Source: Cladopsammia gracilis
Taxonomy: Eukaryota; Cnidaria; Anthozoa; Scleractinia; Dendrophylliidae
Reading direction: 5' to 3'
Length of the DNA: 64,000 nucleotides
NCBI GenBank assembly: GCA_022457155.1
Contig: JAJGOT010000039.1
Coordinates: 946,001-1,010,000 of the forward strand
Shown here: positions 4,723 through 60,650 of the stretch, piece by piece
Numbering within the stretch: position 1 is the first letter of the stretch
How the letters are laid out: each line of letters begins with the position of its first letter
Program-made: the position numbers and the translations under genes
The notes under the pieces: generated by a model
Told to the model about the DNA's origin: nothing
Database searches by the model: none
What the model saw: only the letters and a program-made list of their open reading frames with translations

Positions 4723-4823
4723 ATGTCCGAGGTCATTGATCTGGAGGATATGGACTATGACGGCATATACGACGAGGAGGGTGATCATATGGGATCGCCA
4801 GATAGAAACTCCACCTCAGATGG
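4723..4823 (+). CDS. Gene A exon 1
   Basis: Codes for 33 residues, mostly Asp and Glu, and ends in phase 2 at a strong donor (GG|GTAAGT). Confidence 0.68.
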
Positions 4824-6046
4824 GTAAGTTGTAGCGGCTACGAGCACCAGTCTAGCGGCCTCTTTTGTTTTGAATGAGGAGAAAAAGCATGCGAACGGAA
4901 TGATCGAACGTAAAATAGAACGTTAGATGGGCATAATTGCATGCTACCATCTATCAACAAAAGGGGTCAAAGAAAAGGCCATAATGAAAATTGCTATCAA
5001 ATGCCAAACTACCGATGTTTTTGTCTGCCAACTAAAAATCACTCTCCAGTACGTCCCAGAGAAACACTTGCCTTTTGACGATTCAATTCCGGTAGGTTCG
5101 CGTTCCTCTAATTAAAAAAAAAGATGGCGTCGTTTGTCATTATTTTCGTTTGTCAGTCATTTGTCGTTATTTTTCTTTTCCGCTTTCTCATTCAAATTCA
5201 AAATAATTACCAAGGAGAATTCCAAGAAATAAGTATTATCAGAATGAGAACAACAACGAAGCAAAAGTCTTTTATGAAATAACATATTTTACCCTCTTTA
5301 TTCCAGGAAAACAGGCCAACAACCACGATTGATAACAATCAAGTCTTACACTGAAATATGTATAGAGGCTGGGGAGTAAGTATATGCATAGTTTAGAAAG
5401 CATACTTGACCCCAGTGGGAGAGGAAATAACTTAGGTTATCAGCAAAAATATCAGTAGTTAAAATGCAACTACAACTGTCCAATATCCTAATTACACGTG
5501 AGTGAAGACGAAGTTTCCATCTAAAGGCGGGGGTTCGAGGCTTGATCTCTACCATTTTGCTTTTCCTAAATAGACAAGAAACTTTGCCCATCAATATAAT
5601 GCTGGAGGTAACAATGCAATGGACTATCATCCCATCCGGGGGAGGGGGGGGGGGGGGGGGGGGGGGGTAGAAATACGTGTAGTGCTCAGTAGCTTGTGAT
5701 TTTAATCCACTGAAACCGGAGATAACAGTCCGTGAATGATTCTGAACAGGGTTTTGTCAAGCGACCGTTAGTACAGTTGTCTGCTTACGAGAGTGTCCGC
5801 TCAAAAAAATTAGAAGGCGCACTGTTTTTTCGTTCATTTTCTTTAATTCCTTTCCACCTTAACATTTACATGGCAATGTTTACAAAAATATACTTATATA
5901 TGAAATAAATCATATATGAACTGCGGAAATGAAATCAAATGAAGTATGATCCTCGCAGTTGTGAACGCAATTAAAGTAATTGCGAAAAGAAGCCTGAAAA
6001 AAAAAATTCAGGACTTCAAGGGGGTTCGATACCGGTGCGATGCTCT

Positions 6047-6081
<35 letters not shown>

Positions 6082-57400: not shown

Positions 57401-60400
57401 AAAAATGCTGTTTATAAATGGTAACAAATGTTGTTTTTGTTATCTCCAATTGACTGTTATTTACCAACCTTCCAGGTAAGTTATGGTAGGCGGGCTGTGT
57501 GATCGTACTTTCTGTGCACATCGTGCTAAAAAAGGGGAAAAAATATATATCAAACAGATAACTGTCTTAAAGAGAGAAATATTTGTCAAGTCACAAAGAC
57601 AGAGTTACACATTTTAGCGCCTGAAAATCAGGCGTTTAGGATGGTTTTTACACCATGGAACTATCTTCACAGAAACAAACAGAAAAAATAAGCCATTTAC
57701 CAAACGAAATAACCCTTAAATAATTGGGAATACTCTTAGAAGTTTGTAATCTGGAAGCAGTTGTGGAAAATCGCTCACGTGACTAATTTTTAGTTCTCCC
57801 AAATCACATATCGTTTTATCAGAACGTCAGATTGGCCAAAATTTGAGTAATCCAGGCTGTGATTTTTTAGTTAAGAATGTCTTTAGTTTGTTCACTTGTG
57901 TTTGCAATAAACTGAATGAAAATACAATTTAAAATGTTACCATTTGGTTTGACTGAAATGTATAGTCCAGTAAAGAGAAGACAATAGGCCATTTCCGAGT
58001 TGCCTTTAGCCTTTCTATAAAAGCGAGGCTAGGTGCGAAACCTTTCATATGAAAATGAGTTTTCATTCACATGCAAATAAGTTTTATTTGCATGTGAATG
58101 AAAACTCATTTTCATATGAAAGGTTTCGCACCTAGCCTCGCTTTGATAGAGAGGCCAAAGGCAACTCGGAAATGGCCTATTATATCAAGTAACATGCTAA
58201 ATGTGGTTTGCCTGTTACAACGTGGGCCATTTCACACTGTCAAAGTTTCTTTTGATCAAAGTTGCATGAACATGCATGTATTCAGAAAAAATACAGCATC
58301 ATTTATAATACGCACCGCTTTGTTTTGTAATTTATTACGATTTGAGACAGTGGAGCATTGTAATTATTTCCCCATAGAGTACAAGCATAAGTAAGGTAAG
58401 GATACATAAGAGAATAATATAAACTAATAAGTGTTGCTTTTGAGACATAATGTTTTAACTTAACCATTATATTTATATTTTTGCTAATTTTGCCACATAC
58501 GTAGTCAATATGGTCACGCCAAGTAAGGTGACAATCTATATACACACCAAGGTATTTGACGCAAGAGGACTTCTCTAAATAAACATTTGCTACACTTAAT
58601 GGTGGATACAAATTGTAATTTTCCTTTTGACGAGGCATAAAAATAAGATACCTTAGTTTTTGTCAAATCAATAAGGTCAACTTAGCGCGAATAGAGAATC
58701 AGTCAGCTTTCTCGTTGTCACTGTCGTTCTCTGTTTAATAAAGTTGGATACATCGAAATGTCGTATCACTATAATTGTTGTATTTTTCCTGAAAAATTTC
58801 ACGACAAACCGTTTTTAAAGTTCGCTTGGCAAATCTAAATATTTATCGTTATTCGATCTTTCACACGTCCTGTTTCAGCTTCCGAGAAAAGCGGAAATGC
58901 AAATGACCTTTAGACAAGACTTTAAACTTACAGGTTGGATATGTTACCTTATAGAGCAATATGGTCGCATTTTACAGCCATAGCGTGCGAAATTGCTTTT
59001 TTACCATTGCGGATAATTCAAGGAAAACAAGACTTTCTTTAAGGTATAAGTTTTGCGCAGTTTTTTGTTATATGTAAAACCTCACGAGCACACGGGATCA
59101 GCCTCCATTTTCTGCATAAATTTACTGCATCATGCATCCAGGATAACGGGATACAAACATTTGGTTTCATTTGTTTGGTAATGATGTGTCTCCCGAAAAA
59201 CAAACATTCAACGGAAAATGTTAATTGGTTCTAGCTTTCGAATCTGTAAAATTGTGCTACTTAAGTTCCAAAAAAATTGTTCATTTTTAAAATACATAAC
59301 TTACATAGTTTCAAACATGGCACTCCCTATCTACGTGATTCGCTTGAGAGGTCATGCCAAACCAAACCGACAACAGCCTAACTTTCACTCTAAAACGAAG
59401 CTTACTTTGAAAGTAGTTGCTATGCGTTTTATGGTATGTAGATGGCGATGAAATAAATTAATTTTTCTTTCGAAACCTTCAACACTTTTAAACCGGCTTT
59501 TCCTTTCTTAAACAAAGGTAAAATCATCCAAGATATTAACGAGAGTTCGACGGTAAATTCACTACCTTTATAAAGGTAACCAGACAAAATCACTGACGAA
59601 GGTAGTTAATAGACATCGTTCTCAACTCAGCTTACATCTTTAAATTGGACTGCTGCTTAGTTACAGAAGTATTTCCTATTCCTTATAATATTGCCGTTAT
59701 ATGAAATATTCTGTAATTGTTACAAATGGCAAAACCGCTATCGCCAACTGTGATTTGTTACTGAGGTCATCGATAAACATGCTGTGCTGTGGCCGATAAA
59801 TCAAAGAAAAGTGAATTTGATGGAAGAAAAGTGAAAGTGAAAGTGGAAAAATGGAGCAATGTCATGCCCATGTACAAATTATTGACGTGAGTGAAGAGAG
59901 TCGCTGAAAGAGCGATAGAATAAATATAGACGCCTAAAGATTTATCGAGCATTATATGACGCCGGTCTTAAGCAACCATTCATCAGACATCATCGTTTAC
60001 GTTTTTTTTATAATAAAGGCGAATTACTAGCAGTTGCCAGCAATCTATGTCTTTTATCACTATGTTTTTGGCAGTCAGTCATTTTGTTTTACCTGGCGAC
60101 AGTACTAAATTAACTAGGGACGTCTCGTTGTCAACTGAGTTGGCGCCGACAGACCAAACAGGCGAAAAAAAAATTTAGAATAACTTTCGAGCAGATCCTT
60201 TACAGTTCGACACACGCGAAAATCTGCAATAGCCGTTTGAGATAGAGGGATTTTATATTCTGTTGCTGACAGATCGCTGAATAGCTTAGACTACTTCCGT
60301 GTTTGAAATGATCGTATTATCGATGCATTATCAGACATCTATGAAAAAAGTGCTTGCTTCTGAACATACCTGGTAAAGCATGGCCTATAGGCTTTGAGTA

Positions 60401-60650
60401 TTACATATACGGCTTTTTAAATTACGGCAGGTATCTAGATGGAGGATGATCTAGTTTTAGTAGGGATGTAAAATTATTGTAAGCGTTATACAATGAAGAG
60501 TGTTCTCTGACAGTGCCAGAGTATCAAGGTCACACACACTAACCTGCCTTCATTCGTCGCACCTATCACTGTTTTCTTAGCCACTTCAACGCCATCCATC
60601 GTGGCACGCTCTTCCCGCATAACAAACGCGGCACCTTGTCCAGTGTTCAT
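52518..60650 (-). CDS. Gene C: small Cys-rich single-span membrane protein with Pro-rich linker (5 exons, 181 aa)
   Basis: Minus-strand exons 60650-60544, 57525-57469, 56990-56949, 54945-54776 and 52687-52518 join without a stop to 181 residues. The first three introns are phase 2 and the last is phase 1. The N-terminus resembles gene B (both have V-E-x-[AV]-K-K-T-V-I). Next come Thr/Val-rich segments from two very short exons, a Pro-rich linker (LPVPPVPGPF), the pair CFKC, the box FYSLNGKG, a single membrane segment (CWILVLLLCYVVAGTIVIAL) and a cytosolic-looking Cys/Glu/Arg tail (CKCVGACLEKEEEE). No signal peptide is seen. Orientation and function are unknown. The GTTGGT donor after 57469 is weak, but its phase fits and a better neighbouring GGTAAAT does not fit. 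An internal ATG at 57521 could start a shorter form lacking exon 1. Confidence 0.72.
53344..53628. mobile_element. TTAA-flanked fold-back MITE
   Basis: Arms of about 85 bases (AGTGCCTATCACCCC at the left, GGGGTGATAGACACT at the right) between TTAA at 53340-53343 and 53629-53632. In the last intron of gene C. Confidence 0.75.
53633..54038. mobile_element. Second TTAA-flanked MITE directly abutting the previous one
   Basis: Left end ATGGACACTGTTCC, right end GGGACAGTGTTCCT, flanked by TTAA at 53629-53632 (shared with its neighbour) and 54039-54042. The ends resemble those of the element at 35329-35732. Confidence 0.65.
54186..54656. repeat. ATC/ATT trinucleotide microsatellite, about 470 bp
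   Basis: Almost uninterrupted TCA units with regularly scattered TTA variants. Open in several frames on both strands (poly-Asp/Asn on the minus strand), which is an artefact. In the last intron of gene C. Confidence 0.95.
54776..54945 (-). CDS. Gene C exon 4
   Basis: Acceptor TGGGTTGTAG, donor AAAG|GTAAAT. Codes for the Pro-rich linker, the CFKC pair and the FYSLNGKG box, ending in phase 1. Confidence 0.75.
56188..56337. repeat. Fold-back repeat
   Basis: Arms CAATAAAGGTTGCTTTGGTC and its complement near the right end enclose about 60 bases. In intron 3 of gene C. Confidence 0.65.
56949..56990 (-). CDS. Gene C exon 3 (42-nt microexon)
   Basis: Acceptor TTTATTTCAG, donor CAAG|GTAAGC. Codes for VVTTEIRTVETIT; symmetric phase 2, so also skippable in frame. 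Confidence 0.7.
57469..57525 (-). CDS. Gene C exon 2 (57 nt)
   Basis: Acceptor CCCCTTTTTTAG. Length is a multiple of three with phase 2 on both sides, so it could be skipped without changing frame. Confidence 0.62.
57983..58181. repeat. Fold-back repeat, about 98-bp nearly perfect arms
   Basis: Arms start AATAGGCCATTTCCGAGTTG at the left and end with its complement at the right; very small loop at 58080. In intron 1 of gene C. Confidence 0.8.
58303..58638 (-). mobile_element. LINE C-terminal fragment
   Basis: Minus-strand open reading of about 110 codons with KYLGVYIDCHLTWRDHI followed by LISLYYSLMYPYLTYA, the typical region after the catalytic box of CR1/L2-type reverse transcriptases. It lies between gene C exons 1 and 2. 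No catalytic domain is present. Confidence 0.75.
60544..60650 (-). CDS. Gene C exon 1
   Basis: 35 codons plus two bases; donor GGCAG|GTTAGTG. DNA-level similarity to gene B exon 1 extends into the sequence upstream of the ATG. Confidence 0.62.

What the first reader, a model, noticed from the sequence alone, without database searches (positions are those of the whole stretch)
4723..60650. An unassigned family of small membrane proteins: three genes and one pseudogene in 56 kb
Genes A, B and C share the order Cys pair, aromatic-Tyr-x-Leu-x-Gly-Lys-Gly, hydrophobic span, and in all three a phase-1 intron cuts the last Gly codon of the box. The same intron at the same place in otherwise divergent proteins is hard to explain except by common ancestry. 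Linkers differ sharply (acidic/basic in A, Tyr/Gln/Pro in B, Pro-rich in C), while B and C share N-terminus and a Cys-rich post-membrane cluster. I know of no named family with this layout.
Basis: partly seen in the sequence, partly recalled or inferred. Interest (0 to 1): 0.85.

Follow-up and report, generated by a model that had tools for sequence, protein, structure and literature searches.

The report
Unnamed coral small membrane protein family
Three neighbouring genes and one broken copy in this stony-coral-like DNA belong to one old, still unnamed family of small membrane-anchored proteins that share a short conserved box and membrane anchor but differ in the parts likely to bind partners.

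Summary
The finding holds. Genes A, B and C encode small proteins whose last two exons carry a homologous module: the box (W/F)Y-x-L-x-GKG and an uncharged hydrophobic run of 28-45 residues. A phase-1 intron splits the last box glycine in all three. Profile-profile comparison of A-type with B/C-type proteins gives E 1.9e-11; 0 of 99 scored column shuffles reach it, and box and span each pass alone. Relatives supplied an A exon that my first model lacked (5307-5375); A then has intron phases 2-2-1, exactly as B. The N-terminal halves of A and B/C share no detectable similarity. All nine organism-named relatives are 'uncharacterized' or 'hypothetical' stony-coral proteins. In Stylophora and Oculina the A and B relatives have adjacent locus numbers and equal contig lengths, so the linkage is old. 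D is a pseudogene: a 557-bp terminal-inverted-repeat element in exon 1, a stop in the box exon, no span exon found. Likely mode (inferred): cytosol-facing, tail-anchored adaptors; A ends in an invariant class-1 PDZ-ligand-like tail, GSWV. A real unnamed family; function untested.

The parts
4723..4823 (+). Gene A exon 1 (ATG; ends phase 2)
   Evidence: Open frame, gtaagt donor; 6 of 8 full-length relatives start at the same Met, P0008 has one extra Met and P0002 runs further upstream
5307..5375 (+). Gene A exon 2 (phase 2-2), missing from my first model
   Evidence: 8 of 8 full-length relatives carry it; ag/gtaagt borders, frame kept
6496..6788 (+). Gene A exon 3: acidic/basic linker, CC, box WYSLLGKG; ends in the first base of the last Gly codon (phase 1)
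   Evidence: relatives
7231..7442 (+). Gene A exon 4: hydrophobic span, C-terminus VWGSWV, stop
   Evidence: WGSWV in 9 of 9 A-type proteins, window A included
21031..21140 (-). Gene B exon 1 (ATG; ends phase 2)
   Evidence: 56% identical over 32 residues to C exon 1; P0027-P0035 start in the same manner
12924..12962 (-). Gene B exon 2 (39 nt, phase 2-2)
   Evidence: matches relatives
12138..12283 (-). Gene B exon 3: Tyr/Gln/Pro linker, CCLAC, box WYKLEGKG, ends phase 1
10899..11059 (-). Gene B exon 4: hydrophobic span, CLCICYPLGCC, stop
   Evidence: AlphaFold helix in relative P0033
49264..49297 (-). Pseudogene D, first part of exon 1 remnant
   Evidence: 49259-49297 matches B exon 1 over 39 bases at 82%; weak profile match at 49260-49298, E 3
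48707..49263 (-). 557-bp element with 16-bp perfect terminal inverted repeats inside D exon 1
   Evidence: a related, interrupted copy lies in B intron 1 (19186-19542 and 20173-20411, 95%)
48684..48706 (-). Pseudogene D, rest of exon 1 remnant, followed by a gtaagg donor-like site
   Evidence: (73% over 60 columns, E 0.006); boundary set by eye
47780..47905 (-). Pseudogene D box exon remnant with in-frame TAG before NWYSLEGKG
   Evidence: 58% identical to the B box exon; DNA similarity of 12063-12316 with 47720-47940 (70%) runs into the introns
60544..60650 (-). Gene C exon 1 (ATG; ends phase 2)
   Evidence: relative P0001
57469..57525 (-). Gene C exon 2 (57 nt, phase 2-2), absent from B and from P0001
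   Evidence: Relative P0036 carries a similar stretch (compared by eye); ag/gt borders
56949..56990 (-). Gene C exon 3 (42 nt, phase 2-2)
   Evidence: P0001 and P0036
54776..54945 (-). Gene C exon 4: Pro-rich linker, CFKC, box FYSLNGKG, ends phase 1
52518..52687 (-). Gene C exon 5: hydrophobic span, CKCVGAC, basic tail, stop
   Evidence: P0001

Best explanation
One old family of small membrane proteins, so far seen by name only in stony corals, that grew by duplication in a cluster. Each has an N-terminal part without a signal peptide-like start, a juxtamembrane box (CC or CxxC, then (W/F)Y-x-L-x-GKG) and one long hydrophobic anchor near the C-terminus, encoded by a two-exon module split by a phase-1 intron. 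Shown: homology of the module, open spliced frames, the pseudogene. Inferred: linkage in other corals; B- and C-type proteins are tail-anchored (N-terminus in the cytosol, Cys-rich end at the membrane, probably acylated); the family works as membrane-bound adaptors whose differing N-terminal parts and tails choose the partner. A, whose invariant end GSWV has the shape of a class-1 PDZ ligand, would recruit a PDZ scaffold of the Erbin/Scribble/ZO-1 kind at the cell membrane, its longer hydrophobic stretch folding back so that both ends face the cytosol.
For: Homology: hhalign of the A profile (9 rows) with the B/C profile (19 rows): probability 97.3, E 1.9e-11; 0 of 99 scored segment-wise column shuffles reach the score; box alone 0 of 100, span alone 0 of 100. 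Phases A 2-2-1, B 2-2-1, C 2-2-2-1. Leu-Pro 18 residues after the box in 9 of 9 A-type and 16 of 21 B/C-type. Intron at the same place elsewhere: 16 of 17 partial A-type ORFs (P0010-P0026) and 5 of 10 partial B/C-type ORFs (P0045-P0054) read the box and leave the family sequence straight after GKG (once GNG); two more (P0045, P0051) show the acceptor side. Splicing (inferred): whole frames on contigs of at most 1159 (P0001), 1527 (P0004), 981 (P0006) and 937 (P0027) bases, shorter than the 2.7 (A), 10.2 (B) and 8.1 kb (C) that the genes span here. Linkage (inferred): Stylophora LOC111345665 (A) and LOC111345666 (B), both with contig length 90,124; Oculina ACROYT_G010015 (A), G010014 (B) and G010005 (another member), all with contig length 29,980,128. 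Age: window B falls with Stylophora, Oculina, Orbicella and Desmophyllum B-type (100/99), window C with P0001 and P0036 (99/97). Anchor: after the box 28-45 uncharged residues, then 1-30 residues to the end, in 30 of 30 proteins, no separate earlier segment over the hydropathy threshold; helix 106-140 of P0033, best blocks at pLDDT 96. PDZ-like end: 9 of 9 A-type end in WGSWV; class 1 is X[T/S]X-phi at the C-terminus (passage of PMC2553845); [quoted passage not shown] that LAP2 is Erbin is recalled).
Against: No N-terminal similarity between A and B/C, so shuffling of the module onto other exons is possible. AlphaFold is of low confidence outside the anchor (mean pLDDT 58.6 and 50.0) and draws one long helix in both, not a hairpin in A. 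With a single pass and a cytosolic N-terminus A's tail would be outside, out of reach of a PDZ domain. At -3 A has Gly, whereas the Erbin domain prefers negative charge there (passage of PMC2553845). B and C lack a conserved PDZ-like end. P0017 continues after the box in a way that does not look like the usual donor. No localisation, binding or expression data.
Confidence: 0.6

Rival explanations
1. Module shuffling: the two-exon box-plus-span unit was copied from a B/C-type gene onto unrelated N-terminal exons (or the reverse) to make A, so A shares only its membrane anchor with B and C.
For: No detectable similarity in exon 1, exon 2 or both (83, 25 and 97 of 100 shuffles reach the observed score) or in the whole N-terminal part (39 of 39 scored shuffles reach it).
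Against: The two upstream introns are also phase 2 in A and B, and A- and B-type genes are neighbours here and, by locus number and contig length, in two other corals; fast-changing linkers would lose similarity anyway.
Confidence: 0.3
2. A divergent branch of a known small membrane family with a Cys-rich juxtamembrane motif (LITAF, BRI3, CYSTM, Shisa and the like, recalled).
For: Cys motif before and Cys cluster after one hydrophobic stretch is a layout of LITAF- and BRI3-like proteins (recalled); 1 of 8 A-type proteins matched BRI3 at E 6.5.
Against: No LITAF, CYSTM or Shisa model is listed for 19 B/C-type and 8 A-type members at E up to 10, though HMMER's filters drop most matches above about 0.1; no second HxCPxC-like knuckle (by eye); best PDB sequence match E 0.31, to Par-6.
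Confidence: 0.06
3. Hairpin membrane proteins for lipid droplets or curved membranes, like promethin/LDAF1.
For: 8 of 8 A-type proteins touch PF16015 Promethin, best E 0.22, and 3 of 8 touch Osw5, best E 0.37; the span is long (39-45 uncharged residues in A-type) with a conserved Leu-Pro.
Against: Far below the Pfam cut-off where shown (9.6 against 27 bits for P0003); such matches are expected of long hydrophobic stretches; 0 of 19 B/C-type proteins list it; AlphaFold draws no hairpin (low confidence).
Confidence: 0.12
4. The shared box and intron are convergence or chance in unrelated orphan genes.
For: The box is short, A has no CxxC, and plain tblastn similarity in the window is weak (B to A: box E 0.019, span E 2.9).
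Against: (0 of 99, 0 of 100, 0 of 100), the shared phase series and linkage.
Confidence: 0.03

Closest known systems
Unnamed stony-coral proteins: Stylophora LOC111345665 and LOC111345666, Oculina ACROYT_G010015, G010014 and G010005, Orbicella LOC110046281, Desmophyllum OS493_003976, and records of Montipora foliosa and Acropora cervicornis (P0008, P0009)
   Same: Relatives of A at 56-60% identity (P0003, P0005, P0008, P0009) or of B at 63-68% (P0028, P0031, P0033, P0035); G010005 (P0044) 40%
   Different: Labelled only uncharacterized or hypothetical in the names shown; no Pfam domain attached
Tail-anchored membrane proteins (recalled class)
   Same: No signal peptide-like start, one hydrophobic anchor, 1-30 residues behind the uncharged run in 30 of 30 proteins
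   Different: Anchor run longer (28-45 residues) than is usual (recalled); insertion route untested
ARVCF / delta-catenin C-terminal PDZ ligands (DSWV; passage of PMC3276551)
   Same: A-type proteins end in SWV, 9 of 9
   Different: Gly instead of Asp at -3; a membrane protein without armadillo repeats; binding not shown
LITAF- and BRI3-like proteins (recalled)
   Same: Cys motif before one membrane stretch, Cys after it
   Different: No second Cys knuckle by eye, no significant profile match

Membership tests
The coral box-plus-span family described here | (W/F)Y-x-L-x-GKG box before a hydrophobic span | tested here: met
   A, B, C (box only in remnant D); profile match of A to B/C
The coral box-plus-span family described here | Phase-1 intron in the last Gly codon of the box | tested here: met
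   A, B, C; consistent read-through in partial ORFs of other sources
B/C subfamily | Shared N-terminal exon of the EERARIGGVEV...ATDEG kind | tested here: not met
   Met by B and C, not by A: A is not a member of this subfamily
Any Pfam-A family | Score above the curated cut-off | tested here: not met
   Three window proteins (A in its three-exon form, B without exon 1): one hit, E 1.6, below cut-off. 19 B/C-type: best E 0.097. 8 A-type: best E 0.043 (FliP, 1 member). Cut-offs are printed for the first member only
LITAF / BRI3 / CYSTM | Profile match | tested here: not met
   No LITAF or CYSTM model listed at E up to 10; BRI3 once at E 6.5
Tail-anchored proteins | Single hydrophobic anchor close to the C-terminus, none upstream | tested here: met
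   Hydropathy of 30 proteins; in five the script printed two overlapping segments, read as one
Tail-anchored proteins | N-terminus in the cytosol, post-translational insertion | not testable with these tools
   Needs protease protection or tagging
Class-1 PDZ ligands (A only) | C-terminal X-[S/T]-X-hydrophobic | tested here: met
   GSWV in 9 of 9
Class-1 PDZ ligands (A only) | Binding to a PDZ domain | not testable with these tools
   No binding data

The most novel reading that the evidence does not exclude
A coral-specific set of membrane-docked adaptors grew in a gene cluster from one two-exon anchor module; one old branch (A) gained or kept a tryptophan-type PDZ tail that plugs into the epithelial polarity scaffolds, while the B/C branch diversified its linkers, giving stony corals their own junctional or cortical adaptor system.
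Probability: 0.15. Interest if true: 0.6.

Novelty: new member of a known kind. Interest (0 to 1): 0.42.

Why it matters
Lineage-restricted genes are a large unexplained part of coral genomes (recalled), and most are single orphans with nothing to test. Here a family is defined, with subfamilies, a likely conserved cluster, a fixed gene structure and one sharp prediction (the A tail binds a PDZ scaffold) that one experiment could test. It also shows that a short box plus an intron position, read by eye, pointed to a homology that pairwise similarity in the window (E 0.019 and 2.9) leaves doubtful and that profiles confirm. It does not change any general principle of biology.

Tried and rejected
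First A model with three exons: rejected after 8 of 8 full-length relatives showed a further exon. A hairpin for the whole family: AlphaFold draws one long helix in both types (low confidence outside the B-type anchor); kept only for A, as an inference. Fold search with the B-type model: 806 matches at E up to 10, none at 0.001 or better. Par-6 PDZ-like match of the B/C N-terminus: best E 0.31, not pursued. YxxPhi sorting signal: fits A (YSLL) but not B (YKLE) or C (YSLN), rejected by eye. LITAF-like origin: no profile match. Similarity of A and B/C in exon 1, exon 2 and both: 83, 25 and 97 of 100 shuffles reach the observed scores. Papers: six locus names (five family genes and one Stylophora neighbour), 0 papers; one narrow search for coral lineage-specific Cys-rich membrane proteins, 14 papers holding at least 5 of 6 terms, of which I saw 10 titles and abstract beginnings, none of them naming this family there. 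Of PMC3276551 and PMC2553845 I saw passages only; of the other papers listed the listing only.
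Full report
What is there. Window 4723-60650 holds three intact-looking genes and one broken copy. Gene A (+): exons 4723-4823, 5307-5375, 6496-6788, 7231-7442; 224 residues. Gene B (-): 21140-21031, 12962-12924, 12283-12138, 11059-10899; 151 residues. Gene C (-): 60650-60544, 57525-57469, 56990-56949, 54945-54776, 52687-52518; 181 residues. All inner borders are ag/gt and all frames are open to a stop. The box pattern occurs at four places in six frames: A, B, C and D.

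Gene structure. The other introns are all phase 2: A 2-2-1, B 2-2-1, C 2-2-2-1. C has one extra phase 2-2 exon, of which relative P0036 carries a similar stretch and P0001 does not. The A series became visible only after relatives supplied A exon 2. Agreement at the two upstream introns is mild evidence on its own.

Relatives. A protein search with C gave 1 relative at E up to 1, with the three-exon A 25 at E up to 10 and with an alignment of B, C and P0001 29 at E up to 10, P0001 again among them (only the 7997 candidates sharing most words were scored). Nine of these proteins show an organism name, from six genera (Oculina, Stylophora, Montipora, Acropora, Orbicella, Desmophyllum), all in order Scleractinia. 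A-type names fall in both suborders, Refertina and Vacatina; B/C-type names fall in Vacatina only. The window's species is not known; from these hits it is a stony coral or close kin (inference).

Homology of A with B/C. The A profile (window A and 8 relatives) against the B/C profile (19 relatives) gives probability 97.3 and E 1.9e-11 over 45 columns; with only three B/C sequences it was 95.0 and 3.9e-8. With B/C columns shuffled within four segments, 0 of 99 scored shuffles (1 of 100 failed) reached the observed 74.8, the best being 31.1. Box alone: 0 of 100. Span alone: 0 of 100. N-terminal part: no signal, 39 of 39 scored shuffles (1 of 40 failed) did as well or better. Exon 1, exon 2 and both together: no signal. 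So the shared unit that sequence shows is the two-exon module; the N-terminal parts are either diverged beyond recognition or of other origin. Leu-Pro lies 18 residues after the box in 9 of 9 A-type and 16 of 21 B/C-type proteins, the exceptions being C, P0001, P0036, P0042 and P0044 (P0029 counted by eye).

Age and linkage. On a tree of 21 B/C-type proteins, rooted at the midpoint for drawing only, window B falls in an 11-row set with Stylophora, Oculina, Orbicella and Desmophyllum B-type (100/99), and window C with P0001 and P0036 (99/97), joined by P0042 and a second Oculina gene (97/92). That each set lies on one contig is inferred from this. P0010 (A-type) and P0052 (B/C-type exon 1) also share a contig length, 520,038. 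The linkage is thus probably older than the split of Pocilloporidae and Oculinidae; whether it is older than the two suborders depends on the window's species, which I do not know.

Splicing. Contigs of about 0.9-1.5 kb carry whole open frames although the genes span 2.7-10.2 kb here; these are probably spliced transcripts (inference; gene lengths in the source species are not known). Partial ORFs read through the donor at the same place: 16 of 17 partial A-type ORFs (P0025 lacks the box in frame) and 5 of 10 partial B/C-type ORFs; the other five lack the box, two of them showing the acceptor side. Several rows are near-duplicates, so they are not independent, and P0017 goes on in a way that does not look like the common donor.

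Pseudogene D. Remnants on the - strand: an exon-1 piece 82% identical over 39 bases to B exon 1, cut by a 557-base element with perfect 16-base terminal inverted repeats (48707-49263), and a box exon 58% identical to that of B with an in-frame TAG; similarity runs into the introns. Profile search of six frames found span exons of A, B and C only, other matches being weak and unremarkable. D is most likely a decayed duplicate of a B-type gene.

Structure and function. Each of 30 proteins examined has one hydrophobic stretch after the box, with 28-45 uncharged residues and 1-30 residues behind them (in five the script printed two overlapping segments, which I read as one). AlphaFold gives a confident helix in P0033 (106-140; block means 73, 96, 96, 86) and a low-confidence three-strand meander before it; the A-type model is poor. 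No fold match at E 0.001 (B-type model only), no PDB sequence match better than E 0.31. I therefore commit to cytosol-facing, membrane-anchored adaptors, probably tail-anchored in B and C. For A the invariant end WGSWV (9 of 9) has the class-1 PDZ-ligand form given in PMC2553845 (passage seen) and shares SWV with ARVCF and delta-catenin, whose DSWV is listed as the LAP2 ligand in PMC3276551 (passage seen); the reference list of PMC2553845 also names a paper on Erbin binding to those two C-termini (title seen). Probabilities as I see them: shared module by descent 0.95; unnamed family 0.95; tail-anchored B/C 0.6; A binding a PDZ scaffold 0.3.

Verdict. The kind (lineage-restricted small membrane proteins in a cluster) is ordinary; the definition of the family and the PDZ-tail prediction are new as far as my searches show.

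Noticed in passing
25462-28128 (-): An uninterrupted 889-residue frame with sterol-sensing (E 3.8e-14) and Patched (E 5.2e-12) domains lies between B and D: probably a host Patched-family gene.
   Followed up: partly
15192-16358 (+), inside B intron 1: Reverse transcriptase (RVT_1, E 7.1e-29) of a retroelement; the upstream frame 14418-15077 may belong to it but has no Pfam match at E 0.01.
   Followed up: no
5900-6470, A intron 2: Large inverted repeat (longest arms 100 bases at 98%) containing a tRNA-Thr(GGT)-like sequence at 6313-6384, perhaps two head-to-head copies of a tRNA-derived short element.
   Followed up: partly
19186-19542 with 20173-20411, and 48707-49263: Two copies of one terminal-inverted-repeat element, about 95% identical, one interrupted in B intron 1 and one in D exon 1.
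   Followed up: partly
54166-54687, just downstream of the C box exon: About 500 bases of GAT/AAT-type simple repeat in the C intron next to the phase-1 donor.
   Followed up: no
B/C-type N-terminus (profile positions 5-48 of the B/C alignment): Weak sequence match to the second half of Par-6 PDZ domains (best E 0.31, several related entries); AlphaFold draws three strands there at low confidence.
   Followed up: no
P0037-P0040, P0042, P0043: Further B/C-like members with very short tails (1-8 residues) behind the uncharged run, from unnamed JGI/Logan contigs; species unknown.
   Followed up: partly
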